64,000 nt of DNA from an uncultured Treponema sp. (GTDB taxonomy: Bacteria; Spirochaetota; Spirochaetia; Treponematales; Treponemataceae), in assembly GCA_947166355.1 (NCBI GenBank), contig CAMVDX010000014.1, positions 1 to 64,000 on the forward strand, written 5' to 3'. Positions 34,239 to 48,301 of this stretch are shown one piece after another (position 1 is the first letter of the stretch; each line of letters opens with the position of its first letter). The notes under the pieces are model-generated. The model was not told the origin of the DNA. It worked only from the letters and a program-made list of their open reading frames with translations, and did not search any database. A program made the translations under genes and the position numbers.

Positions 34239-35315
34239 TTATCCTTCTGCGGCATCAAGAACTTCAGGTTCTTTCATTTTATGCTTTTCGGTATACATGG
34301 CTTTATCAGCAAATGAAATAAGTTCTTCTACACTGTTTCCATCTTTCGGGTAAACTGCGATTCCTACTGCTGCCGAAATATCAGCAAGAACACGGTTTGA
34401 AAGTCGGGCAGGTACATTCAGAACGGCTTTAATGCGTTCAACTGTATTTTCATAATTAGTGCCGGTATTTTTTCCACGGAAAATAATAATGAATTCATCT
34501 CCGCCAAAGCGTGCAATTATGTCTTCTGGTCTTACAGATTCTGAAAGTCGTTTTGCAACCTTTGCGAGTGCAGCATCACCAATGGTATGCCCATAATTAT
34601 CATTAATCTGCTTGAAATTATTCATATCTATAAAACAAAGTGCAACCTGGGTTCCATTGCGGTTTGCATAATCAATTTCTTTTTTGAGTGTAAAAATTGC
34701 CGTCTGCTTTGTATAAAGTCCGGTGAGCTGGTCTAAGGTAGCAAGCTGAGCGAGACGAATATTACTTTGTCTGAGCTTAAAAAACAAAAGTGTAAGAATT
34801 GTAAAAGCTGCAATCAAAAGCATTGAAAGGGTGGAAAGAACTATTACAAGATGAATGTTTACCCAGGTTCCGTTTGGAGCTACGGCAAATTCATAATGTC
34901 CATCTGGTATTTCAAGTCGTACAGAAATCGGTTTATGAAGAAGCTCATAAGGTGAACCGTAAATATTGGTACGTTCGTTTGTGTAATTGTTTACTTTATA
35001 AATTGAAAATTTATAGTCGCGGCTCTGTAATCCGAAAAGATTAAAGTGTCCCATAAGAATTTTTTTAAGTGTTTTATCATCATGCTCTAAGGCATTGTTG
35101 TAATTTTCTTTTATTTCAGAAGCATACAAAAGAGCAAGGTTTTCTGCTTCGAGTTTGCGGGAACGTACAGAGCCAAAGGATTCATAAATGCTTATATCTG
35201 TAAAAATCAAAAGCAGAATTAGAAAAACGGCAATTACAAAAACTAAATCCTTTTTCATCAAACGGCTTAATGTTGAAATGTCATACGATTTTTTTCCAAA
35301 ACGATTTGTGTCCAT
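34239..35315 (-). CDS. Membrane diguanylate cyclase (GGDEF)
   Basis: DQLTGLYTKQTA; DMNNFKQINDNYGHTIGD; ARFGGDEFIIIF; two TMs. Confidence 0.93.
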   Translation of the reverse strand: MDTNRFGKKSYDISTLSRLMKKDLVFVIAVFLILLLIFTDISIYESFGSVRSRKLEAENLALLYASEIKENYNNALEHDDKTLKKILMGHFNLFGLQSRDYKFSIYKVNNYTNERTNIYGSPYELLHKPISVRLEIPDGHYEFAVAPNGTWVNIHLVIVLSTLSMLLIAAFTILTLLFFKLRQSNIRLAQLATLDQLTGLYTKQTAIFTLKKEIDYANRNGTQVALCFIDMNNFKQINDNYGHTIGDAALAKVAKRLSESVRPEDIIARFGGDEFIIIFRGKNTGTNYENTVERIKAVLNVPARLSNRVLADISAAVGIAVYPKDGNSVEELISFADKAMYTEKHKMKEPEVLDAAEG

Positions 35316-35641
35316 AAGTATACTATTATAAGCCCAAAATAGAATTTTTTCTAATTATTTTATTTCTTTCTTTGGCAAAGTAGTTCCGCCATCTGCATAG
35401 AAAACTGGCAGGCAGACAAGGGGTGGTTTCATTGTTGAAGAATCTTGCAGCATTTGTTTCTCTTGACGAAAAAGGCGAAAGAAGTTTTAAAATTTTTGCA
35501 AAAATGATTAACACAATGAGTGATTTCTGCTATTATTCCCCGAACGTTGAAATTTAGGTAGTAAAGCTAAAAAAATTGCCTTCGGTTCCTACGCAGCGTG
35601 ACGGCTTTGACCGGTTATTTATCATTACAAAGAGGTAATAG

Positions 35642-36814
35642 ATGTTTAATCGTAGCGATTATGTCAGCGATAAGGACTGGCAGCGTTTTCTCGACTTTTC
35701 TAAGGATTTGGAAACCCCAAATATCGTAATCAATCTCAATACTATCAAGCAGAATTTTATTCGTCTTAGAGATTCATTTCCTTATGCACGAATTTATTAT
35801 GCAATGAAGTCAAATCCGGGTGAACCGGTTCTGGAAATGCTTGCTGAAATGGGTTCCTGCTTCGACATTGCTTCCCGCTATGAGCTGGACATGATTTCTA
35901 AGTTCAATGTTTCGCCGGACAGACTTTCTTACGGCAACACAATCAAAAAGGCTAAGGACATTAAATACTTTTACGACAAGGGTGTGCGCATGTTCGCAAC
36001 CGACAGCAAGGACGACCTCAAGGCCATTGCTGAGAACGCTCCCGGTAGCCGTATTTATGTGCGTATTCTTGTTGAGAACTCGGTAAGTGCAGACTGGCCG
36101 CTTTCCCGCAAGTTCGGCTGTCATCCGGATATGGCTTATGATTTGCTCGTTCTTGCCCGTGACCTTGGCCTCACTCCTTATGGAATCAGCTTCCATGTTG
36201 GAAGCCAGCAGCGCGATATTGGTCAGTGGAACGACGCTATTGCAAAGGTAAAATATCTTTTCACTTCTCTTGAAGAGGAAGAAGGAATCCGCTTGAGCAT
36301 GATTAACATGGGTGGTGGTTTCCCTGCAAGTTACATTGAACCTACGAATACTCTTGCTGAATATGCGGCAGAAATTACACGTTATATCCAGGAAGACTTT
36401 GGAGACGATATTCCGGAAATTATTCTTGAGCCTGGCCGTTCTCTCGTGGGTGACAGCGGAATTCTCACAAGCGAAGTAATTCTGACTTCGCGAAAAAACA
36501 ACACAGCACTGGCACGCTGGGTATACGTAGACGCAGGAAAATTCAACGGCCTCATTGAAACCCTCGATGAGTCAATTAAATATCCTGTTGTAACCAGCCG
36601 CGACAAGCCGGGCGAAAAAGAAGGCATCGTAATTATTGCAGGCCCTACCTGCGACTCTATGGACATTATGTACGAGGATGCAAAATATAAACTTCCGATT
36701 TCACTAAAGGCCGGCGACAGACTTTACTGGCTTTCTACAGGTGCTTATACTTCGACTTATGCGTCTGTGGCATTTAACGGATTCCCGCCGATTAAGACTT
36801 ACTTTATGCGCTAA
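35642..36814 (+). CDS. Fold-type III PLP-dependent decarboxylase (ornithine/lysine decarboxylase-like)
   Basis: IYYAMKSNPGEPVL; ISFHVGSQQ; MINMGGGFPASY; LEPGRSLVGD; AGPTCDSMDIMYED. Confidence 0.87.
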   Translation: MFNRSDYVSDKDWQRFLDFSKDLETPNIVINLNTIKQNFIRLRDSFPYARIYYAMKSNPGEPVLEMLAEMGSCFDIASRYELDMISKFNVSPDRLSYGNTIKKAKDIKYFYDKGVRMFATDSKDDLKAIAENAPGSRIYVRILVENSVSADWPLSRKFGCHPDMAYDLLVLARDLGLTPYGISFHVGSQQRDIGQWNDAIAKVKYLFTSLEEEEGIRLSMINMGGGFPASYIEPTNTLAEYAAEITRYIQEDFGDDIPEIILEPGRSLVGDSGILTSEVILTSRKNNTALARWVYVDAGKFNGLIETLDESIKYPVVTSRDKPGEKEGIVIIAGPTCDSMDIMYEDAKYKLPISLKAGDRLYWLSTGAYTSTYASVAFNGFPPIKTYFMR

Positions 36815-36821
36815 AATCGAA

Positions 36822-36904
36822 GAACCGTTAAAAACAAAGCGCGTAAGCGGTTTGTTTAGGTTCATCGAAAAAAAGCGTCAGAGGCAAGCTGTGCTTGCCG
36901 ACTT
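36822..36904. repeat. Dispersed palindromic element, family D (second copy)
   Basis: gaaccgttaaaaacaaagcgcgtaagcggtttgtttaggttc...cagaggcaagctgtgcttgccgactt. Confidence 0.85.
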
Positions 36905-36911
36905 ATTTTTT

Positions 36912-37604
36912 ATGGAACAGAAAATCAATTATCAAAAAAAATTAGACCAGTTGCTTGCTGCACTCGAGGGGTCGGACGAAAAACCAACTCTCCTGCTGCA
37001 TGCCTGCTGCGGGCCCTGTTCCTCTTATGTGCTTGAATATCTTTCCAAATATTTTCAGATTACAGTTTTGTATTATAACCCCAACATTTATCCTCAGGAA
37101 GAATACGAAAGGAGGCTCGCGGAGTTGAAAAAGCTCTATGAAGTTTTTCCGCCTGCACTGAATACTGGAGTGAAGGTCGTTGAATGCGAGTATGAGCCTG
37201 AACAGTTTTACAACGCCGTGGGAGTGCGTGCCGAGCCCGAGCTCGCCCAGGAGCCCGAAAAAGGCGAACGCTGCCGCCGCTGCTACAAGTTCCGCCTGGA
37301 ACGAGCCGCCGCCTATGCTGCTCAAAATCATTTTGATTATTTCTGTACTTCGCTTTCAATAAGCCCTTTTAAGGATGCCGTAAAAATCAACGAGCTTGGA
37401 GTTGAGATTGAGCGTTCATTGCTGGCCGATCCTGCCACCACTGCCACCGAGCCCTCGGAAAAATCCCCAAAATGGCTTTTTTCTGATTTCAAAAAAAAAG
37501 GCGGCTTCAAACGCAGCCTCGAGCTAAGTGAAGAATACGGCATGTACCGTCAGACCTACTGCGGCTGCGTGTATTCAATGAAGAATAAAGAGAAGAATAC
37601 CTGA
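36912..37604 (+). CDS. queH: Epoxyqueuosine reductase QueH
   Basis: LLLHACCGPCSSYVLEYL...YYNPNIYPQEEYERR...CRRCYKFRL...CGC; ORF track start 36741, ATG at 36912 likelier. Confidence 0.88.
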   Translation: MEQKINYQKKLDQLLAALEGSDEKPTLLLHACCGPCSSYVLEYLSKYFQITVLYYNPNIYPQEEYERRLAELKKLYEVFPPALNTGVKVVECEYEPEQFYNAVGVRAEPELAQEPEKGERCRRCYKFRLERAAAYAAQNHFDYFCTSLSISPFKDAVKINELGVEIERSLLADPATTATEPSEKSPKWLFSDFKKKGGFKRSLELSEEYGMYRQTYCGCVYSMKNKEKNT

Positions 37605-37919
37605 TTATTCAGAAAGGACTTTTAATAAATCTCTTGAGCCATTTACAATTCGAATAACATAAGCTGTATCATCAATTATCTTATAGATTATGGAATACTT
37701 ACCTATAGAAAAGTATCTGACACCTTCACTATAATACGGCTCTTCTGGAAAAAAATGATAAGAATCAGCCATAAAACTCAAATCTTCAACAGCCTGAGTC
37801 AGTTTTTTGAGAAGTTTAATAGCTGCTTTTTGATTCTTATATTCAGTTGCTATAAAAGAAAATATATTGTCTAAATCGATTTCTGCTTTTTCTGAATATG
37901 AAACCTTGAATGTATTCAT
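37605..37919 (-). CDS. ParE/RelE-family toxin
   Basis: FKVSYSEKAEIDLDNIFSFI...YYSEGVRYFSIGKYSIIYKI...VIRIVNGSRDL. Confidence 0.85.
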   Translation of the reverse strand: MNTFKVSYSEKAEIDLDNIFSFIATEYKNQKAAIKLLKKLTQAVEDLSFMADSYHFFPEEPYYSEGVRYFSIGKYSIIYKIIDDTAYVIRIVNGSRDLLKVLSE

Positions 37920-38164
37920 ATTCCGTATTTTTCGAAAAGACGCTGGTGAACTGTCTCTGCAGGGGTTACACGGCCTTTTTTAATATCAGAAAGACCTTCA
38001 TCAATTTTTTTATGGAGCTCATCAGTTGAAGAAACAGTAATACTTGCTGGTGCAGAGATTTCTTCTTGAATAGAATCTTCAAGCATCGTATACAACGAAA
38101 GCTTTTGCTGATAAGAAAGTGTCAAAATTGTATTCAGTAATTTAGAATAATCTTCCTGTGGCAT
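37916..38164 (-). CDS. Antitoxin of the ParE/RelE-type module
   Basis: 82 aa, overlaps the toxin start (4 nt). Confidence 0.75.
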   Translation of the reverse strand: MPQEDYSKLLNTILTLSYQQKLSLYTMLEDSIQEEISAPASITVSSTDELHKKIDEGLSDIKKGRVTPAETVHQRLFEKYGI

Positions 38165-38194
38165 ACTGTCCTCCTGATAAATATTCTAACATAT

Positions 38195-38563
38195 TTAGTG
38201 GTTTATTTCACCATTAATACATCCAAAATTACTGATAAAGTCTACAAGAAGCTTTTCTTTTTCGGGGGAAAGTTCTTCGCATTTTTTTATGATTTCTGAA
38301 TGTTTTCGATATAGCCTGAGTTGATTCTGCTCTTCTTCGTGATTTTTCGAAGAGTTAGGATTATTTGTTCCGTTTACAAGATATTCAACAGATACACCCA
38401 GAACTGCGGCGATTTTTACTGCGGTGTCGGCGGAGGGAGTACCACCAGATTTAATTCCTTGACCAATATTTGTTACACTGAAATTACATTTTCTTGCAAG
38501 ATAAGCTCGATTGATACCCTTATAGTCTATCTCTTCATCAACCCTTTTCCAAAAATCGCTCAT
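38195..38563 (-). CDS. XRE-family HTH regulator (possible controller protein)
   Basis: NRAYLARKCNFSVTNIGQGIKSGGTPSADTAVKIAAVLGVSVEYLVNG; divergent from methyltransferase. Confidence 0.85.
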   Translation of the reverse strand: MSDFWKRVDEEIDYKGINRAYLARKCNFSVTNIGQGIKSGGTPSADTAVKIAAVLGVSVEYLVNGTNNPNSSKNHEEEQNQLRLYRKHSEIIKKCEELSPEKEKLLVDFISNFGCINGEINH

Positions 38564-38634
38564 TATCTAAATATGTGAAATATTTCTGACTTTTTCTTCT
38601 AAAACTATGGATTTTCTGATTTTATCTGTTATAC

Positions 38635-38648
38635 TCAGATATATCTGA
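38635..38648. promoter_or_regulatory. Perfect 14-bp palindrome TCAGATATATCTGA, candidate operator
   Basis: Between divergent XRE and methyltransferase genes; degenerate half-sites (tttctga, ttctgat) nearby. Confidence 0.55.
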
Positions 38649-38693
38649 TTTTGTATTTTTTAGTAAGTAATTATTCACTTATAGGGTAATAAA

Positions 38694-39683
38694 ATGGGAA
38701 ACAATGCAGCTCTACGCAAAGCAGACAGAATTAAAGAAGATGAGTTTTATACACAACTTTCAGATATAGAAAAAGAACTTTCACATTACAAGGAATATTT
38801 TAGAGGAAAGACTATATTATGTAATTGTGATGATCCGCGTATTTCAAATTTTTTTAGATATTTTGCATTGAATTTTAATGAATTTGGAATAAAGAAAATT
38901 ATTTCAACTTGTTATAAAAACCAAGATGTAGATTTATTTACACAAAATGATTGCGAAAAGGCTGTATACATTGAATATACAGGAAATCCTGACGATCCGA
39001 CTTCTACAGATTTTTCAACAATTGAAGTAAAGGAATTAAAAGGTGATGGAGATTTTAGAAGTCAGGAATGTATTGATTTATTGAAACAAGCTGATATTGT
39101 TGTTACAAATCCTCCGTTCTCTCTGTTTAGAGAATATGTTACTCAGTTAATAGAGTATTCGAAGAAATTCATAATAATTGGAAATCAAAATGCTATAAGT
39201 TATAAAGAAATTTTTAAATTATTTAAAGAAAACAAAATCTGGCTGGGATATAAATCAGGAGATATGGCTTTTAGAGTTCCTGATAATAGTGAACCTCGTA
39301 CTACACGTTTTTGGATAGATGAAAAAGGAAATAAATGGAGAAGTATGGGTAATGTTTGTTGGTACACAAATCTTGATACAACAAAACGACATGAAGACTT
39401 AATTCTTTATAAAACATATTCAGCAGAAGAATATCCTAAATTCGATAATTATGATGCAATAAATGTTAATAAAACTTCAGACATTCCATTAGACTATGAT
39501 GGATTAATGGGAGTACCAATTACTTTTTTTGATAAATATAATCCAGAGCAATTTGAAGTAATTGATGGAATTGGACGTTATAGTATTTTAAACAATGAAG
39601 AAACAAAAAAAGCGGGAAAGTACTTATCTATGATAAACGGTAAGGCAATTTATTTTAGAATTATTATCAAGCGTAAAAAATAG
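38694..39683 (+). CDS. EcoRI-family adenine-specific DNA methyltransferase
   Basis: ADIVVTNPPFSLFREYV (NPPF motif), KTILCNCDDPRISNFFRYFA, KIWLGYKSGDMAFRVP. Confidence 0.87.
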   Translation: MGNNAALRKADRIKEDEFYTQLSDIEKELSHYKEYFRGKTILCNCDDPRISNFFRYFALNFNEFGIKKIISTCYKNQDVDLFTQNDCEKAVYIEYTGNPDDPTSTDFSTIEVKELKGDGDFRSQECIDLLKQADIVVTNPPFSLFREYVTQLIEYSKKFIIIGNQNAISYKEIFKLFKENKIWLGYKSGDMAFRVPDNSEPRTTRFWIDEKGNKWRSMGNVCWYTNLDTTKRHEDLILYKTYSAEEYPKFDNYDAINVNKTSDIPLDYDGLMGVPITFFDKYNPEQFEVIDGIGRYSILNNEETKKAGKYLSMINGKAIYFRIIIKRKK

Positions 39684-39689
39684 GCCCGC

Positions 39690-39850
39690 CTGCGAGCTTA
39701 CAGGGCTAGGGCGTGGAGCCACGCCGGAGGCGGCCACCGCAACGAAATGAACTAACGTTAGTTAGTGAATGAAGTGAGGAGGCTGGAGCGATAGCGTAAT
39801 GGCGGAAGGCCCGACCCGAACCCGCCTGCCGGCAGGCAGGAGGAGTGAGG
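39690..39850. repeat. GC-rich dispersed element, family F (gtggagccacgccggaggcggccac...ggctggagcgatagcgtaatggcggaaggcccgac)
   Basis: Second copy at 61720-61920. Confidence 0.82.
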
Positions 39851-39876
39851 GGAGCCCCCAAGGAGAAAAGAAAAAT

Positions 39877-40968
39877 ATGAAAATTACTTTGCACACAATT
39901 AAGGTCCGCGAGCTTGTAAACGGATATCAGGATAATGATGAGGCTGGGGTTGTTGGCTTTGACGGGAAGCTGGATATCAGGCCGCCCTATCAGCGGGAGT
40001 TTTGTTATAATGATAATCAGCAGCAGGCGGTAATGGATACCGTGACGAATGGATTTCCTCTGAACACGATGTACTGGGTAGTTCGAGAAGATGGACGCTA
40101 TGAAGTTCTGGACGGGCAGCAGAGAACTATTTCGATTTGCCGCTATGTGAACGGAACTTATTCTCATAACATGCGTTACTTTACAAACCTGCAGCCAGAC
40201 GAAAAAGAGCAGATTCTGAACTATGATTTGCAGGTTTATTTTTGCGAAGGAACTGACAGCGAAAAACTGAGCTGGTTTAAAACTATAAATATTGCGGGAG
40301 AAAAGCTCACTGAACAGGAAATTAGAAATGCGGTTTATGCGGGCTCGTGGACGGCTGAGGCTAAAAAGATTTTTTCTAAATCGAATTGCGCGGCAAAACT
40401 TTTGGGCGATAAATATGTAAACGGAAATCCTATTCGTCAGGAGCTTCTTGAAACTGTTTTGGGCTGGTACGTTGGAAAAGATGATAAGCTGATTTGTACT
40501 TACATGGGAAAGCATCAGAATGATTCTAATGCAAACGAGCTCTGGGTTTATTTTCAATTTGTGATTGCCTGGATTAAAGCCTTATTTCCAACTTACAGAA
40601 AAGAGATGAAGGGAATTGACTGGGGCATGCTTTATAATCAGTATCACGAAAATGATTATGATCCGGCAGCCCTTGAAAAGGAAATTGTTTCTTTAATTGA
40701 TAATGAGGAAGTTACAAATCATAAGGGCATTTATTATTATCTCTTTGATAGAAAAGAAAGTCATTTAAGTTTGCGGGAATTTGATGATAAGATGAAGCGT
40801 AAGAAATATGAGGAACAGAAAGGCATTTGTCCTCTTTGTAATCAGCATTATGAATTTACTGAAATGCAGGGAGACCATATTGTTCCCTGGAGTCGAGGCG
40901 GAAAAACTGTTTATGAAAATTTGCAGATGCTTTGCAGGCTTTGTAATAATACTAAGAGTAATAAATAA
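39877..40968 (+). CDS. DUF262 (ParB-like) + HNH endonuclease protein
   Basis: DIRPPYQREF, YEVLDGQQRTISI; C-terminal HNH CPLCNQHYEFTEMQGDHIVPWSRGGKTVYENLQMLCRLCNNTKSNK; start 39877 rather than 39799. Confidence 0.88.
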   Translation: MKITLHTIKVRELVNGYQDNDEAGVVGFDGKLDIRPPYQREFCYNDNQQQAVMDTVTNGFPLNTMYWVVREDGRYEVLDGQQRTISICRYVNGTYSHNMRYFTNLQPDEKEQILNYDLQVYFCEGTDSEKLSWFKTINIAGEKLTEQEIRNAVYAGSWTAEAKKIFSKSNCAAKLLGDKYVNGNPIRQELLETVLGWYVGKDDKLICTYMGKHQNDSNANELWVYFQFVIAWIKALFPTYRKEMKGIDWGMLYNQYHENDYDPAALEKEIVSLIDNEEVTNHKGIYYYLFDRKESHLSLREFDDKMKRKKYEEQKGICPLCNQHYEFTEMQGDHIVPWSRGGKTVYENLQMLCRLCNNTKSNK

Positions 40969-41012
40969 AAACAGCAATCGAAAATTCACACTTTCTGTGC
41001 TATAATTAATTT

Positions 41013-43223
41013 ATGGCACAGGAAAGAGCACACGCAACTGATCAGGACATTGAACGAATTTTAAAAGTGAAGGATGCAGACATGGGACTTTTTGTTCTGG
41101 CGATGCATTCTTTGATGGAAAGAGCGCTTAAAGAAAAATATAATTCTGATGATTCTTTTGGTGATTTAATTAATCAATATGTAAATGATTATAAGTTTAC
41201 TCATGGAAATCCTGTAGATGATAAAAAAAGACCTGGGGAGATTTTTTATAAATTATCTGGTGATAAACAAAAGCTTTTTTCGCAGCTTACTAAAATTTAT
41301 GAAAATCATTTTCTTTCAAATAAAGTCCGTCATCGGTTTGAGTTTATATCAGAAGAAAAAGCTAAAACTACAGTTGCCTGTTTTCTTGCCTTTGCACAGG
41401 CAGAAGGCTGGGATTCTCTTAAGACTATAAAAAAACTTGAAGAGGAATTAAAAGAATGGCAGCTTCATGACGGCTACCAGAGTCCTGAACTCAAAAAAGC
41501 AATTGCTGAAATCTCTCGACTTAAATCAGAAAATGAAAATCTTGCGCAAAAGGCAAATGAATTGGCTGACTTACAAAATCAGCTGGCAACAATTTCTGCT
41601 CAGGAAAATCTTCTGAAAAGTCAGCTTGCAGAAAGTGAAGCTCGTCTTTCTAAAAAAGATGAAAAGCTGGATAAGGTTCGCCAGAATGCTAATGAACAGA
41701 GCATGAAGTTCCGAAAAGAACGCGAAGAAATTCTTGCAAAGCTCAAAGACTACGAGCAGACTAAGCAGTATCTTGAGATGCTTGAGCAGGTTGCCTTTTA
41801 TACAAAAACCCGCCACGATTATGAGCAGTCGATAATTACGCTTAGCCGCGAACAGGCTGATGTTCTGAATCAGATAAAAGTAAATCGCGATTTTCTTATC
41901 AAGGGTGCGGCCGGAACCGGAAAATCTCTTGTGCTTATAAAGCTTCTGGAAAAGGCAGTAAATGAACTTAAAGGCGAGCTGGCTTTTGAAGATTTAGCGG
42001 CCACTAACAGCTTCCGCCTGCTCACTTACACAAAGAGTCTTGTAAAATATAATCAGTATGTTACAAAGCTTTTGAATACTCAGGTTTCAGAAAAATCAAT
42101 TACAACAGCAGATTCATTTATTGCTTCTCTTTTGAAAATGTTTTTTCCTGGGAAAGGTTTTGGGTATAAATATTCAGATTATCCTGCAGAAGTTTTTGAT
42201 AATACAGATTTTGATGGAGCGACAATTTTTACAGAAGCAGATAAGTTTATCTGGGCAAACTGCATAAACAAGACTAAGTATGTTGATGAAGTTTGTGAGC
42301 GTGAGGGAATGAAGTTTCCGCTTAAAAAAACTGACCGCGAAAAAATGTGGAAGGCACTCGAAGCAGTTGAGGCAAAGCTTGAGAATTGCAGTTTATGGCC
42401 GAGAAATTTTGCCGCAAAGAAAATTGCGGAACGGCTGGAAGCTGGCGAACTTACAGCCGGCGGCACAGAGGTTGCTTCTGTTATGGCAGAATATTCCTTT
42501 GTTGATGAAGCGCAGGATTTACCGCCGGTAATTCTTTCGGTAATCAAAAAGTCAACAAAAAGAGCTGTCTTTCTTGCGGGCGACAGCGACCAGACAATTT
42601 ATACAAAGGGCTTTAACTGGAATCGTTCTGGAATTGATGTTCAGGGCCGCACAAAAATCCTCAAAACAAATTTCCGTAATACAGCACAGATTCACGAGTA
42701 TGCAGAAAAATATCGCAGCAGCTTTACTCACAAAGACAGCACAACAATGCCCGATGCCTTCCGTCCGGGTCCACCGGTTCAACATATTGTTGCAAAAAAT
42801 AATGAGGATGTAAAAAATCAGATTGTAGAGCAGGTTAAACTTTTGATGAACGCCCTGAACTATGCCGAAGAAAATATCTGCATCATTGCAAATACAAAAG
42901 AAAAGCTTAAAGCTTTACAGGATTTCCTCGACAAAAAGCTGGGAGTTGAGTCTAATATTGTTGAAGATTATTTTGATTTTGAAGGCACAGGCGGAATCCG
43001 TCTTTGTACAATGCAGAACTGTAAAGGTCTGGACTTCCCGGTAGTTCTCTTCCTTGCCGATCACCGTGTTCGCGGTGCAGAAGAAAAATCATTTTATGAT
43101 GAAGAAACTTTTATGATGCAGCAGTTCAACATGGTTTACGTAGCTCTCACCCGTGCAATGGAAATGCTTTATGTTTACACAATCCAGGGCAGCGAATTTG
43201 AGCCGTTTAAGAGATTGTCATGA
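41013..43223 (+). CDS. SF1 (UvrD/Rep-like) helicase with N-terminal coiled-coil extension
   Basis: Walker A GAAGTGKSLVL; FVDEAQDLPP; AGDSDQTIY; NFRNTAQIHEYA; MQNCKGLDFPVV; VALTRAMEMLYVY. Confidence 0.87.
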   Translation: MAQERAHATDQDIERILKVKDADMGLFVLAMHSLMERALKEKYNSDDSFGDLINQYVNDYKFTHGNPVDDKKRPGEIFYKLSGDKQKLFSQLTKIYENHFLSNKVRHRFEFISEEKAKTTVACFLAFAQAEGWDSLKTIKKLEEELKEWQLHDGYQSPELKKAIAEISRLKSENENLAQKANELADLQNQLATISAQENLLKSQLAESEARLSKKDEKLDKVRQNANEQSMKFRKEREEILAKLKDYEQTKQYLEMLEQVAFYTKTRHDYEQSIITLSREQADVLNQIKVNRDFLIKGAAGTGKSLVLIKLLEKAVNELKGELAFEDLAATNSFRLLTYTKSLVKYNQYVTKLLNTQVSEKSITTADSFIASLLKMFFPGKGFGYKYSDYPAEVFDNTDFDGATIFTEADKFIWANCINKTKYVDEVCEREGMKFPLKKTDREKMWKALEAVEAKLENCSLWPRNFAAKKIAERLEAGELTAGGTEVASVMAEYSFVDEAQDLPPVILSVIKKSTKRAVFLAGDSDQTIYTKGFNWNRSGIDVQGRTKILKTNFRNTAQIHEYAEKYRSSFTHKDSTTMPDAFRPGPPVQHIVAKNNEDVKNQIVEQVKLLMNALNYAEENICIIANTKEKLKALQDFLDKKLGVESNIVEDYFDFEGTGGIRLCTMQNCKGLDFPVVLFLADHRVRGAEEKSFYDEETFMMQQFNMVYVALTRAMEMLYVYTIQGSEFEPFKRLS

Positions 43224-43254
43224 AAATGAAAGACGGCTAGGTTTTGTGTCTTAA

Positions 43255-43557
43255 TTATTTATACGTAACCAGAAGAACACTGACTGCGGCCAGTAGAAAA
43301 ATCATGTACACCAGCACAAGCGGAGAGGCAATCTGAGGAAAGCTTATCAGCATAAAAGCGAAGACAAGAGTTAATGCGCCCAGACCCAGAGCTACGTAGC
43401 CGCTGCTTTTTGCGCGCAGCTGATTTTTACGAAGGCCTTCCGGCGACTTGTCGGCAGCAGCTTCGTTGAGCTTGTCTAAAAATCCGGGTAAGAGGAAATA
43501 TACTCCGGCGGCGCAGAAGGCTATGCCGGCGATAAAGAATAGTATAACTAAAATCAT
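43255..43557 (-). CDS. Small multi-TM protein
   Basis: Hydrophobic segments; overlaps ftsK stop. Confidence 0.55.
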   Translation of the reverse strand: MILVILFFIAGIAFCAAGVYFLLPGFLDKLNEAAADKSPEGLRKNQLRAKSSGYVALGLGALTLVFAFMLISFPQIASPLVLVYMIFLLAAVSVLLVTYK

Positions 43558-46500
43558 GGAACGTGAATTACCTCGCGAGGTTTTGCACCGTTTGCAGGGC
43601 CGACAATTCCGCGCTCTTCCATTTCCTCAACGAGGCGTGCTGCACGGTTATAGCCAATCTTCAGACGGCGCTGCAGGTAGCTTGCGCTGGCCTTGCCACT
43701 CTGAACAACAATTTCGAGAGCCTGGTCGTACAGCGGGTCATCATCATCCATCGGCTCGCCGAACAAATCGCGTGCTCCTTCTTCGTCATCGTCGTCAACG
43801 AAAATTTCTTCATCAATGTAGTCTGGCTCGCCGTAGTCTTTTACAGCGGTAACTACATTCTCAACTTCCTGGTCGCTTACGAAGGTTCCCTGAATTCGGA
43901 TTGGAGCAGGATCCACTGCAGAAGCATAAAGCATATCACCACGTCCAAGAAGCTTTTCGGCGCCAACTGTATCAATAATGATATTCGAGTCTGTACGGCT
44001 GGCAACCATGAAGGCGATTCGGGTTGGAATGTTTGCCTTGATAAGACCTGTGATTACGTTTACAGATGGACGCTGAGTTGCGAGAACAAGGTGAATACCA
44101 ACCGCACGGCTCATCGCAGTAAGACGCGCTACGATATTTTCGAGTTCCTTTCCGCTGGTTGCCATGAGGTCGGCAAACTCATCAATAATAACAACGATGT
44201 ACGGCAGCTTTTCTGTACAGATTTTCTGCTCTTTAATTTTTTTGTTGTAGTTAGAAATATCACGTACACCCATACCATCGAGCAAAGCGTAACGGCGTTC
44301 CATTTCGCATAGACACCACTGCAGGGCCTGGAGGGCTTTCTTTGGCTCTGTGATTACCGGTGTGAGCAGATGTGGAATATTATTGTAAAGCTTGAGCTCG
44401 ACAACCTTAGGGTCTACGAGAATCATTTTTACATCTTCAAAACTTCGTTTGTAAAGAATTGAAAGAATCAGTGAGTTTACACAAACAGACTTTCCGGAAC
44501 CAGTTGCACCGGCAATCAGCATATGCGGAGTTTTTACGAGGTCTATCAGCTGGGCCTTTCCAAGAATATCTTTTCCGAGTACAACAGGTACAGCCATCTT
44601 CTTCCATTCAGGTAAATCCATTTCTATGATTTCGCGGAAGCCAACTACCGATCGGTTGCGGTTTGGAACTTCAATACCAACAGCCTGCTTACCAGGAATT
44701 GGCGCAACAATTCGGACAGACTGGGCGGCAAGACTGAGAGCGATGTTATCCTGCAATGCAACAATCTTACTGAGCTTTACGCCTGGTGCCGGCAGAATCT
44801 CGAACATTGTAACAACCGGGCCTTTTTTGATTCCGATAATATCAGCTTCAATATTGAATTCAGCAAGAGTTTGCTTTAGGTTGAGTGAAGCCTGTTTTGT
44901 TGCGTCGTCGATAATCCAGTACTGGTCGTCTTTATAGGCTGTGAGCAAATCTGAAGGAATTATATAAGGGCCTTTCTTTGTGGCGCGGTTTGTCTTCGGC
45001 GGATTAGCGGCAATCTCTTTTGTGTGCGGACGGTTTTCTTCCTGCTGTGCATTAAAGAAATCAGAAAGCTCATCTTTGGTCAGATTTGTTGCTCCATGAT
45101 TTGGAGTATTGCCTGCCTGAGCTTTAGAAGATGCGGCTGGTTCTGCTGAATGATCAGCTGCCGGTTCTTCTGCATTTTTTTCTGCAGAGACTTGTGCCGG
45201 TGCAGGTGAATTCTTTCTGATATCAGCTTCCATATCAGAAAAAACGCTGGCAGCCGCTCTTGAAATATCTACTTCATCCTCTTCAACAGTTTCCTGTTCT
45301 TCCTGCAGTGCAAGCTGATTAAAAATCTGTGGCTCATCATCAGCGAAATTATCATCAATGCTTATTTCAGGTTCTGCTGTTTGTTCAGAATTTTCTTCAA
45401 CTACAGGCTCTTGAATTTTTGGAGCAGTTTTCTTTGTATCTACATTTTCAAAATAATTATAAAGATTTTCTTTTGTAGCAATTTTTGGTTCAGCGACATC
45501 ATTAAAATAGGAACCTACCGACTGGTAGTTTTCCTTTTGGTCTGCTGCTTCAGTTGAAGATTTAGTTTCAGATTCAGAGACAGAGTTCTCATCTGTCAAC
45601 TGAATCCGAGTAGGGAACTTAGGTTTCTCTAAATTATTGGCTGAAGTTTTTTTTTCCTCAGTTTCGGCCTGTGCCGGAGTTGATTCATCATGAATCACAA
45701 TCTTATGTGGAAACTTAGGATTTTCAACTACAGTATCAATATAGCGTACAGCTGCGTAAGGATCATTAGAATTATCTTTTGACTCTTCAGCAGATACAGG
45801 AGCTTCAACAGTAGCTTCTGCCGATGCAGAATGCTGAGTTACAGCAGGCTGAACCGGAGCAGTCTCCGGCTTACTGCCAGTTTCCAGCTTACCGCTAGAC
45901 TCCAGCTTACCGCCAGCTTGTTTACTTTCAGATTCAACATCATCGACTGGAGGGAATGTAAGAGCAGGATCATTTTCATCAAAATCAGCATCATATTCAG
46001 GAGGAAGCGATTCTGGCTTTGGAGGAAGGTCAGGCCATTCAAGCTCATCTTCTGGAGTTGTGAGTGCAGCAAATTCTTCCTGTGTAATAATAGAATTCGG
46101 ATTAGAAGAATCAGATTCTTCTTCATCTTGGGTAGCAGCCGGAACAGAAATTGTTTGAGCCGGTTTTTGGTTTTCAGTTTTTGCGGCAGGAATTACCGGC
46201 GGAGTATAATAAACCTCTGAGTCTGGAGCATTTTTGTAATCTTCAAAGGCTGGAGCATCCTGCTCTTCAATTTCAGTTTCGTCATCAGCATCTGCTTCAG
46301 CACCAATATCAGAGGCAGGTTCAATGTCAGAAAGAACTTCATCAAAAATTGAAAGCTTTGGAATATTTTCTCCGTCATAAGATTCGTTTGCATCGTCAGA
46401 AGAATCCTCATTCTTTTTGAATTTTTCCTTGAGCTTTTCAAAAAGCGATTTCTTAGATTTTTCAGAATTATCAGAATCAATAGCAGAGAGCTTAGAAATT

Positions 46501-47111
46501 TTTGTGAAACCCTGATTAATATCCGAGGCTTCAGAATCAGTACTTTCAAAATTTTCCGCGGTCTCCCCAACATCCGCATCCTCAGTCTCTTTGAGAATGC
46601 TTTCATCATTTTCATTTTCCGAGCTCTTACGAACAGCCGCCTTTCTAAATCCCCTGGTGTTAAGTCTGTCAGCAATAATACCGGTTCCCAGGAATTCAAT
46701 TACAACAAGCATAGCTCCGGTAACAAGGGCAATCAGAATTTTTACGATTTTAAACGATGAAAAATCTACCTTTAGAATTGAGCGGATAATGCTTTCTGTA
46801 ACTACGCAGGTAAAAAACGGCACAAGCGCAGTGAGAAGTCGCAGAGTCTTGCGGGCAGTCCATTTAGAAGCAAAGCACGAAAGCCCAGCAGTAAGCAGAA
46901 AGCCCGGAATCAAAATGCTGCAAAAGCCGTAAACAGAATACAGCATATCTCCCAGCATATAAAAAATATTACTATGCCCCGGACCGGCAACGCCATAATC
47001 CAGCGGAAGAAGAATCAAACTGATTGTAAAAAGTGCCGCCAGCAACAGCAATGCGGCTCCCGTTATGAAACTAGACTTATTAGATGCTCTCATAGTTCCA
47101 TTATCGGACAA
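43554..47111 (-). CDS. ftsK: FtsK/SpoIIIE-family DNA translocase with very long acidic linker
   Basis: N-terminal TMs; GATGSGKSVCVNSLILSILY; IDEFADLMAT; RPSVNVITG; C-terminal gamma domain SASYLQRRLKIGYNRAARLVEEME. Confidence 0.95.
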   Translation of the reverse strand: MSDNGTMRASNKSSFITGAALLLLAALFTISLILLPLDYGVAGPGHSNIFYMLGDMLYSVYGFCSILIPGFLLTAGLSCFASKWTARKTLRLLTALVPFFTCVVTESIIRSILKVDFSSFKIVKILIALVTGAMLVVIEFLGTGIIADRLNTRGFRKAAVRKSSENENDESILKETEDADVGETAENFESTDSEASDINQGFTKISKLSAIDSDNSEKSKKSLFEKLKEKFKKNEDSSDDANESYDGENIPKLSIFDEVLSDIEPASDIGAEADADDETEIEEQDAPAFEDYKNAPDSEVYYTPPVIPAAKTENQKPAQTISVPAATQDEEESDSSNPNSIITQEEFAALTTPEDELEWPDLPPKPESLPPEYDADFDENDPALTFPPVDDVESESKQAGGKLESSGKLETGSKPETAPVQPAVTQHSASAEATVEAPVSAEESKDNSNDPYAAVRYIDTVVENPKFPHKIVIHDESTPAQAETEEKKTSANNLEKPKFPTRIQLTDENSVSESETKSSTEAADQKENYQSVGSYFNDVAEPKIATKENLYNYFENVDTKKTAPKIQEPVVEENSEQTAEPEISIDDNFADDEPQIFNQLALQEEQETVEEDEVDISRAAASVFSDMEADIRKNSPAPAQVSAEKNAEEPAADHSAEPAASSKAQAGNTPNHGATNLTKDELSDFFNAQQEENRPHTKEIAANPPKTNRATKKGPYIIPSDLLTAYKDDQYWIIDDATKQASLNLKQTLAEFNIEADIIGIKKGPVVTMFEILPAPGVKLSKIVALQDNIALSLAAQSVRIVAPIPGKQAVGIEVPNRNRSVVGFREIIEMDLPEWKKMAVPVVLGKDILGKAQLIDLVKTPHMLIAGATGSGKSVCVNSLILSILYKRSFEDVKMILVDPKVVELKLYNNIPHLLTPVITEPKKALQALQWCLCEMERRYALLDGMGVRDISNYNKKIKEQKICTEKLPYIVVIIDEFADLMATSGKELENIVARLTAMSRAVGIHLVLATQRPSVNVITGLIKANIPTRIAFMVASRTDSNIIIDTVGAEKLLGRGDMLYASAVDPAPIRIQGTFVSDQEVENVVTAVKDYGEPDYIDEEIFVDDDDEEGARDLFGEPMDDDDPLYDQALEIVVQSGKASASYLQRRLKIGYNRAARLVEEMEERGIVGPANGAKPREVIHVP

Positions 47112-47188
47112 TAAAAAAAAGATTTTAGAGTTTTTAGGGTATATTTTTTCCTTGTTAGATTCCTTGAAAAACTGTTATAATTGAAGAT

Positions 47189-48301
47189 ATGAAAGCATCT
47201 GCAAATAAATCAGAAAAATCAGACAAGCCGGTAAAGACGGTTGGAATTTTGACTTCGGGCGGTGATGCGCCTGGGCTTAATGCGGCAATTCGGGCATTGT
47301 GTATTTCGGGAAAAAATAATTACGGAATGAAGTTTATTGGAATCCGTAATGGTTACCGTGGACTTATAGATAACGATACATTCAAGATGGACGAGATTGA
47401 TCTTGAACCTCTGATTTCTCAGGGCGGAACAATTCTTGGCACTTCGCGTGTAAAGCCATTTAAAAATCCAGTGCCAGATCCTAAAACCGGTCTTCTTCCT
47501 GTTGAGGGAATCAAAGAAACCTTTAAAAAAAATAAGCTTGATGCGCTTGTGTGTCTTGGCGGAAACGGAACAAATACTACTGCTTCGCTGCTTTCTGAAG
47601 CGGGCTTCAACGTAATTGGAATGCCTAAGACTATTGATAACGATATTGTCGGTACAGACGAAACCTTTGGCTTTCATACAGCAATTGATGTTGCAACTCA
47701 CGGAATAGAAGCAATTCGTACAACCGCAAAAAGTCACAGTCGTGCAATGGTTGTAGAAATCATGGGTCACAAGGTCGGCTGGCTTGGTTTGTATGCCGGG
47801 CTCGCAGGTCGTGCAGATGTAATCCTTTTACCGGAAATTCCTTATGACATTAAAAAAATTGCAAAATACATGAAGGCTAAAAAAGCTAAAGGCCAGAATT
47901 ATTTTATTATTGCCTGTTCTGAGGGTGCAATTGATCTGGATGAAGCAAAGCTTGGTAAAAAAGATTTTAAAAAGGCGCGTGAAGCTATGACTCAGAGTGT
48001 TGGCTTTCGTGTTGCAAAAGAAATTGAAGCAGAAACCGGAATAGAAACCAGAACAAGCGTACTAGGATATTTGCAGCGAGGTGGAGATCCTGCTCCTTAT
48101 GATATGATTCTTGCTACAAAGCTTGGAAATGCTGCGGCAGATTTTCTTGCAGAAAAGCGTTTTGGGAATCTTGTTGCCGTAAAGAATGGAATAATTGCTG
48201 CAACTCCACTTTCTGTTGTTGCGGGAAAAGTAAAGGAAATTACAGAAAAGGATCCTGTACTTAAAACTGCCCGAGACCTTGGAATTTGTTTTGGGGACTA
48301 A
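47189..48301 (+). CDS. 6-phosphofructokinase family
   Basis: GILTSGGDAPGLNAAIRAL; GGNGTNTTASLL; PKTIDNDIVGTDETFGF; YLQRGGDP. Confidence 0.93.
   Translation: MKASANKSEKSDKPVKTVGILTSGGDAPGLNAAIRALCISGKNNYGMKFIGIRNGYRGLIDNDTFKMDEIDLEPLISQGGTILGTSRVKPFKNPVPDPKTGLLPVEGIKETFKKNKLDALVCLGGNGTNTTASLLSEAGFNVIGMPKTIDNDIVGTDETFGFHTAIDVATHGIEAIRTTAKSHSRAMVVEIMGHKVGWLGLYAGLAGRADVILLPEIPYDIKKIAKYMKAKKAKGQNYFIIACSEGAIDLDEAKLGKKDFKKAREAMTQSVGFRVAKEIEAETGIETRTSVLGYLQRGGDPAPYDMILATKLGNAAADFLAEKRFGNLVAVKNGIIAATPLSVVAGKVKEITEKDPVLKTARDLGICFGD

What the first reader, a model, noticed from the sequence alone, without database searches (positions are those of the whole stretch)
37605..43223. Defence-like island: TA, XRE, EcoRI-type methyltransferase, DUF262-HNH, SF1 helicase
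An EcoRI-family methyltransferase without an EcoRI-like nuclease is followed by a DUF262 protein with an intact-looking HNH motif and then a UvrD/Rep-like helicase, with a divergent XRE regulator. DUF262-HNH proteins are known from modification-dependent (GmrSD-like) restriction. The set could be a composite restriction system with methylation-based self protection; I do not recognise this exact combination as a named system.
Basis: partly seen in the sequence, partly recalled or inferred. Interest (0 to 1): 0.66.

Follow-up and report, generated by a model that had tools for sequence, protein, structure and literature searches.

The report
EcoRI-type methyltransferase with unrelated DUF262-HNH nuclease
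This stretch of a Treponema-like genome carries a compact two-gene restriction-modification system with its own repressor, in which a methyltransferase of the EcoRI family is paired with a nuclease of quite a different build (DUF262-HNH); the pair is common in bacteria and already listed as a predicted type II restriction enzyme family, while the neighbouring helicase and toxin-antitoxin genes are not part of it.

Summary
The genes are there as described, but the grouping is wrong. The functional unit is 38195-40968: a divergent XRE repressor, an EcoRI-family m6A methyltransferase (52% identical to authentic M.EcoRI) and a single-chain DUF262-HNH nuclease with intact DGQQR and HNH motifs. Methyltransferase and nuclease are co-conserved: 73 of 75 independent loci with readable upstream DNA, in about a dozen phyla, also alone on plasmids and in a Flavobacterium phage. 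The helicase occurs in none of 79 nuclease loci, and relatives share only 38225-40970 with the window, so helicase and ParE toxin-antitoxin pair are unrelated passengers of a QueH-FtsK insertion hotspot. PADLOC's type II REase model matches the nuclease end to end (465 bits), so this is a predicted type II R-M family, not a new composite. What I found no paper on: authentic M.EcoRI proteins nest inside the DUF262-paired methyltransferases, so the same modification enzyme has partnered two unrelated nucleases; the likely target is GAATTC or a close variant (untested; no genomic site avoidance). A four-half-site operator of fixed geometry between XRE and methyltransferase changes sequence with the repressor's recognition helix. 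Best reading: type II R-M with a GmrSD-fold nuclease blocked by its own methylation, possibly NTP-stimulated.

The parts
38195..38563 (-). XRE-family regulator (122 aa), read as the repressor of the R-M operon
   Evidence: HTH_3 5e-6, RstR-like; divergent from the methyltransferase in most Treponema loci; recognition helix covaries with operator sequence
38585..38648 (.). Predicted operator: half-sites TCTGA/TCAGA at 38585, 38615, 38635 (inverted) and 38644; the last two form the perfect palindrome TCAGATATATCTGA (38635-38648)
   Evidence: Same 30-20-9 spacing in 8 loci with two half-site types; 0 of 500 shuffles in 7 of them, 2 of 500 in the eighth
38694..39683 (+). EcoRI-family adenine (m6A) methyltransferase, 329 aa
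   Evidence: PF13651 469 bits; about 52% identity to M.EcoRI encoded next to R.EcoRI
39684..39876 (.). GC-rich dispersed repeat between methyltransferase and nuclease genes; ends in the AAGGAG ribosome-binding site of the nuclease
   Evidence: 16 matches in the own genome
39877..40968 (+). DUF262-HNH restriction nuclease, 363 aa (corrected start)
   Evidence: PF03235 + PF01844; PADLOC REase_II PDLC03418 full length, 465 bits; 44-sequence alignment; model pLDDT 87.6

Best explanation
A mobile type II restriction-modification cassette (38195-40968). The EcoRI-family methyltransferase methylates adenine in a short palindrome, most likely GAATTC or a close variant, on host DNA. The DUF262-HNH nuclease (ParB/Srx-type N-terminal domain, helical middle, Zn-ribbon HNH at the C-terminus) cuts unmethylated copies on incoming DNA, and m6A at the site blocks it. 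The divergent XRE protein represses the methyltransferase-nuclease operon through a four-half-site operator. Shown here: gene content, motif conservation, linkage across phyla, cassette boundaries, relation of the methyltransferase to M.EcoRI, operator geometry. Inferred: recognition sequence, blocking by methylation, direction of regulation. Open: whether cleavage uses or is stimulated by NTP, as in GmrSD enzymes. Helicase and ParE module are independent neighbours in an insertion hotspot.
For: Nuclease matches PADLOC REase_II over 372/372 positions. Methyltransferase within 0.9 kb in 73 of 75 loci with upstream room, often overlapping by 4 bp. Pair stands alone on plasmids of Aeromonas, Lactiplantibacillus, Rhodococcus, Gordonia, Leuconostoc and Enterococcus and in Flavobacterium phage laban6-1. 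Invariant DGQQR and HNH residues. Purifying selection: 67 nt but 4 aa differences to L001. Fold matches: HNH nuclease 4H9D, BrxU, ParB/Srx, all weak in E-value. Methyltransferase about 52% identical to M.EcoRI; EcoRI-partnered methyltransferases nest among DUF262-partnered ones, nearest such one 67% identical to M.EcoRI. Cassette boundary 38225-40970. Operator.
Against: No activity data. A GAATTC-predicted homologue in Prevotella intermedia, with a REase gene directly downstream, showed no GAATTC methylation (PMC5608340). GAATTC is not avoided in this genome (180 observed, 208 expected, rank 33 of 64). The repeat between the two genes may weaken nuclease expression. The regulator is missing outside Treponema.
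Confidence: 0.8

Rival explanations
1. Composite defence system as proposed: methyltransferase, DUF262-HNH nuclease and helicase (plus XRE) act together, the helicase providing translocation.
For: The helicase follows the nuclease directly in the same orientation, 44 bp after its stop codon.
Against: No helicase homologue in any of 79 nuclease loci, 47 of which have the full 8 kb on both sides. Shared block with relatives ends at 40970. Helicase homologues have varied neighbours, in one genome a RecB/RecD-like operon.
Confidence: 0.03
2. A modification-dependent (type IV, GmrSD-like) nuclease that happens to sit beside a methyltransferase and targets phages with modified bases.
For: DUF262 with DGQQR is the GmrS domain and BrxU is among the best structural matches; GmrSD enzymes cut modified cytosine DNA (PMC4619093; PMC4437046).
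Against: Near-obligate linkage to one m6A methyltransferase family; C-terminal domain is a PF01844 HNH, not DUF1524; a nuclease needing the cognate mark would attack its host.
Confidence: 0.07
3. Type II R-M whose target is not GAATTC or a close variant but another sequence to which the EcoRI methyltransferase family has diversified.
For: Family spans to about 35-40% identity; no GAATTC avoidance; no GAATTC methylation in P. intermedia.
Against: Window methyltransferase is full-length and about 52% identical to M.EcoRI, and the EcoRI clade nests among DUF262-partnered ones.
Confidence: 0.3
4. Decaying or silent cassette: the repeat inserted between the genes has uncoupled the nuclease and only the methyltransferase still matters.
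For: 193-bp dispersed repeat with copies elsewhere in the genome separates the genes, whereas most homologues overlap or abut.
Against: Nuclease keeps its own AAGGAG site and an open frame and is under strong purifying selection, in L001 with the same repeat in place.
Confidence: 0.1

Closest known systems
PADLOC REase_II family PDLC03418 / predicted type II R-M systems with an EcoRI-like methyltransferase
   Same: Nuclease matches over its full length at 465 bits; EcoRI-family methyltransferase next to it
   Different: No characterised member found in the papers searched; the window copy adds a divergent XRE repressor and a repeat between the genes
EcoRI R-M system (R.EcoRI + M.EcoRI)
   Same: Methyltransferase of the same family, about 52% identical
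   Different: Nuclease is DUF262-HNH, not PD-(D/E)XK EcoRI; gene order is M then R instead of R then M
GmrSD / BrxU / SspE DUF262 nucleases
   Same: N-terminal DUF262 domain with DGQQR and a C-terminal His-Me finger nuclease in one chain; BrxU among the top structural matches
   Different: Shorter (363 aa against about 580 for BrxU), PF01844 HNH instead of DUF1524, bound to a cognate methyltransferase
Controller-protein (C) regulated type II R-M systems
   Same: Small XRE regulator beside the R-M genes with repeated operator half-sites at the promoter
   Different: Divergent from the methyltransferase-nuclease operon rather than co-transcribed with the nuclease; probably a plain repressor (comparison from general knowledge)

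Membership tests
Type II restriction-modification system | Separate DNA methyltransferase and nuclease genes, adjacent and co-inherited | tested here: met
   73 of 75 loci with upstream room
Type II restriction-modification system | Nuclease belongs to a catalogued type II REase family | tested here: met
   PADLOC REase_II PDLC03418, positions 1-372 of 372, 5.7e-140
Type II restriction-modification system | Catalytic motif intact | tested here: met
   Cys pairs, D333-H334, N348, N357 kept
Type II restriction-modification system | Cuts a fixed unmodified site, blocked by cognate methylation, without NTP | not testable with these tools
   Needs purified enzyme
EcoRI R-M system | M.EcoRI-family methyltransferase | tested here: met
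   PF13651, 469 bits; about 52% identity to M.EcoRI
EcoRI R-M system | EcoRI-family PD-(D/E)XK nuclease gene | tested here: not met
   Partner is DUF262-HNH
EcoRI R-M system | Recognition of GAATTC | tested here: inconclusive
   Only indirect: GAATTC observed/expected 0.86 in 444 kb of own genome, 1.01 in a relative without the system
GmrSD type IV restriction | DUF262 domain with DGQQR | tested here: met
   PF03235, invariant DGQQR
GmrSD type IV restriction | DUF1524 C-terminal domain | tested here: not met
   PF01844/PF14279 HNH instead
GmrSD type IV restriction | No cognate methyltransferase | tested here: not met
   Methyltransferase linked in 73 of 75 loci
GmrSD type IV restriction | Cuts modified DNA only | not testable with these tools
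   Needs purified enzyme and modified substrates
C-protein regulated R-M | XRE regulator with operator repeats at the R-M promoter | tested here: met
   (sequence only)
C-protein regulated R-M | C gene in one operon with the nuclease, activating it | tested here: not met
   XRE is divergent; activation itself not testable
Three-gene composite with helicase | Co-conservation of methyltransferase, nuclease and helicase | tested here: not met
   0 of 79 loci

The most novel reading that the evidence does not exclude
A GmrSD-fold, possibly NTP-stimulated nuclease works as an EcoRI isoschizomer or neoschizomer: the EcoRI methyltransferase family has been paired with two unrelated nucleases, and the PD-(D/E)XK EcoRI system arose when the DUF262-HNH partner was replaced.
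Probability: 0.35. Interest if true: 0.6.

Novelty: new member of a known kind. Interest (0 to 1): 0.38.

Why it matters
It settles that the reported island is not a new composite system but a widespread, mobile two-gene R-M family. The family has hundreds of members, yet I found no experimental study of it. It links the textbook EcoRI methyltransferase to a nuclease fold known from modification-dependent restriction, so it offers a direct test of partner exchange in R-M evolution and of how a GmrSD-type domain could read an unmodified sequence. The matched repressor and operator variants at fixed geometry are a ready set for studying specificity change in XRE regulators.

Tried and rejected
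GAATTC avoidance as a clue to specificity: 0.86 in own genome (rank 33 of 64), 0.70 in another carrier, 1.01 in a non-carrier; too weak and confounded by recent acquisition. RAATTY methylation in Campylobacter looked like support for an AATT-core target, but the enzyme is annotated as a D12-class methyltransferase (PMC4294202); the spirochaete RAATTY enzymes (PMC7380536) are not assigned to the EcoRI family there, so I do not use them as evidence. Phmmer against the PDB gave mainly HNH-domain matches for the nuclease and nothing for the methyltransferase. Promoter scan no better than shuffles. Operator geometry was clear for two recognition-helix types only; three other types gave weak or no support. 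Literature searches for a DUF262 type II enzyme found none; subscription journals and REBASE itself were not searchable.

Full report
Observation. Pfam gives ParE for 37605-37919, HTH_3 for 38195-38563, EcoRI_methylase for 38694-39683 (469 bits), GmrSD_N (DUF262) plus HNH for the next ORF, and UvrD/AAA_19-type SF1 domains for 41013-43223. One coordinate needs correcting. The DUF262-HNH ORF runs from 39799 only because it reads through a GC-rich repeat; homologues start at the ATG at 39877, which has AAGGAG upstream. The repeat (39684-39876) has 16 matches in the 3.25-Mb own genome.

What belongs together. A scan of 84,980 species genomes with the nuclease gave at least 582 relatives, of which the best 79 loci were read. 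They come from Spirochaetota, Bacteroidota, Campylobacterota, Pseudomonadota, Bacillota, several candidate-phyla bacteria, Elusimicrobia, Lentisphaeria, Acidobacteria, Verrucomicrobia, Anaerolineae, Ignavibacteria and Vampirovibrio. Four loci begin within 240 bp of the nuclease and cannot show an upstream gene. Of the other 75, 73 have an EcoRI-family methyltransferase within 0.9 kb (in one case on the downstream side), often overlapping the nuclease start by 4 bp; in the two others it lies 5 and 8 kb upstream. The helicase is found in none of the 79, 47 of which have 8 kb on both sides. In the genus, 63 of 196 genomes have a nuclease match (some only weak or partial), and every close copy fetched with enough upstream DNA had the methyltransferase. 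The pair also sits alone on plasmids and in Flavobacterium phage laban6-1.

Boundaries. DNA comparison with L001 and L006 shows homology over 38225-40970 and 38223-40968 and none outside within 35000-47200: exactly XRE, methyltransferase and nuclease. In the relative G015, the same QueH-FtsK interval holds a YhcG-type nuclease instead; in G003, LysA directly adjoins the small gene next to FtsK. So 37605-43240 is an insertion hotspot holding three independent items: ParE module, R-M cassette and helicase. Helicase homologues have varied neighbours, in G005 a RecB/RecD-like operon.

The nuclease. 363 aa, matching PADLOC's type II REase model over its full length. Forty-four sequences down to 37% identity share DGQQR, D333-H334, N348, N357 and K360. 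Against L001 there are 67 nucleotide but only 4 amino-acid differences, dN 0.007 and dS 0.36. The AlphaFold2 model (pLDDT 87.6, pTM 0.69) has best structural matches to the HNH nuclease 4H9D, BrxU, and ParB/sulfiredoxin folds, all with weak E-values. The domain make-up is GmrSD-like, but with a PF01844 HNH in place of DUF1524.

The methyltransferase and the likely target. It is about 52% identical to M.EcoRI proteins encoded beside R.EcoRI. In a tree of 101 sequences, the five EcoRI-partnered methyltransferases form one clade (support 1.0) inside the DUF262-partnered ones; the nearest DUF262-partnered one (L051) is 67% identical to M.EcoRI. The tree is unrooted and some inner nodes are weakly supported, so the direction of exchange is inference. 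This makes GAATTC or a close variant the best guess. Against it: GAATTC is not avoided in the genome, and a P. intermedia homologue predicted as GAATTC showed no such methylation (PMC5608340).

Mosaic structure. Compared with L001, the window is 89-98% identical at the XRE C-terminal half and over repeat plus nuclease, but only 53-79% over the XRE DNA-binding half, operator and methyltransferase. Compared with L006 that middle block is mostly 77-90% identical. The middle block seems to have been exchanged as a unit while the nuclease stayed, which fits a shared target site among these methyltransferases.

The regulator. In eight Treponema loci the XRE-methyltransferase interval has four half-sites at fixed spacing (30, 20 and 9 bp). 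Loci whose XRE has the helix SVTNIGQG carry TCTGA-type half-sites; those with PxSYISKG carry GGTAT-type half-sites, at the same positions. Seven of the eight beat all 500 shuffles and the eighth was reached by 2. Three other helix types gave weaker or no support. The shuffles are of single bases, so they do not keep dinucleotide content, and two of the eight loci (L010, L011) are nearly identical. Repression, rather than activation, is inferred from position.

Mechanism and verdict. The best reading is a type II R-M cassette whose nuclease is a single-chain DUF262-HNH protein blocked by m6A at its site. NTP stimulation, as in Eco94GmrSD (PMC4437046), is possible and untested. As a system it is a new member of a predicted family; the partner exchange with EcoRI and the repressor-operator variants are the parts worth following.

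Noticed in passing
37605-43240: Variable insertion interval between QueH and FtsK: a YhcG-type PDDEXK nuclease in G015 (L218), nothing between LysA and the FtsK side in G003 (L219).
   Followed up: partly
39684-39876: Dispersed GC-rich repeat, 16 matches in the own genome, inserted between methyltransferase and nuclease; also creates a spurious antisense ORF 39706-40557.
   Followed up: partly
41013-43223: SF1 helicase with an N-terminal helical and coiled-coil region; patchy in the genus, next to a RecB/RecD-like operon in G005 (L223).
   Followed up: partly
G018 (same genome as L004 and L074, Treponema berlinense by matching contigs), contig C13 1-340000: ATTAAT strongly depleted: 3 observed against 51.7 expected, hinting at an ATTAAT-specific restriction system.
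   Followed up: no
window and G000 samples (444 kb): ACGCGT depleted (3 observed, 17.3 expected) and GTCGAC (5 against 17.6).
   Followed up: no
L231:2180-4282: Lactiplantibacillus plantarum plasmid protein fusing an EcoRI-family adenine methyltransferase to a C5-cytosine methyltransferase.
   Followed up: partly
L042: Two equally matching methyltransferase-nuclease pairs 7.9 kb apart near both ends of the contig; probably a small circular plasmid assembled with overlap.
   Followed up: no
L149 (Flavobacterium phage vB_FspS_laban6-1, NC_048834): A phage carries the complete methyltransferase + DUF262-HNH pair next to its tape measure gene.
   Followed up: partly
1-62: Window and contig start with nine perfect copies of ACACTCA.
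   Followed up: no
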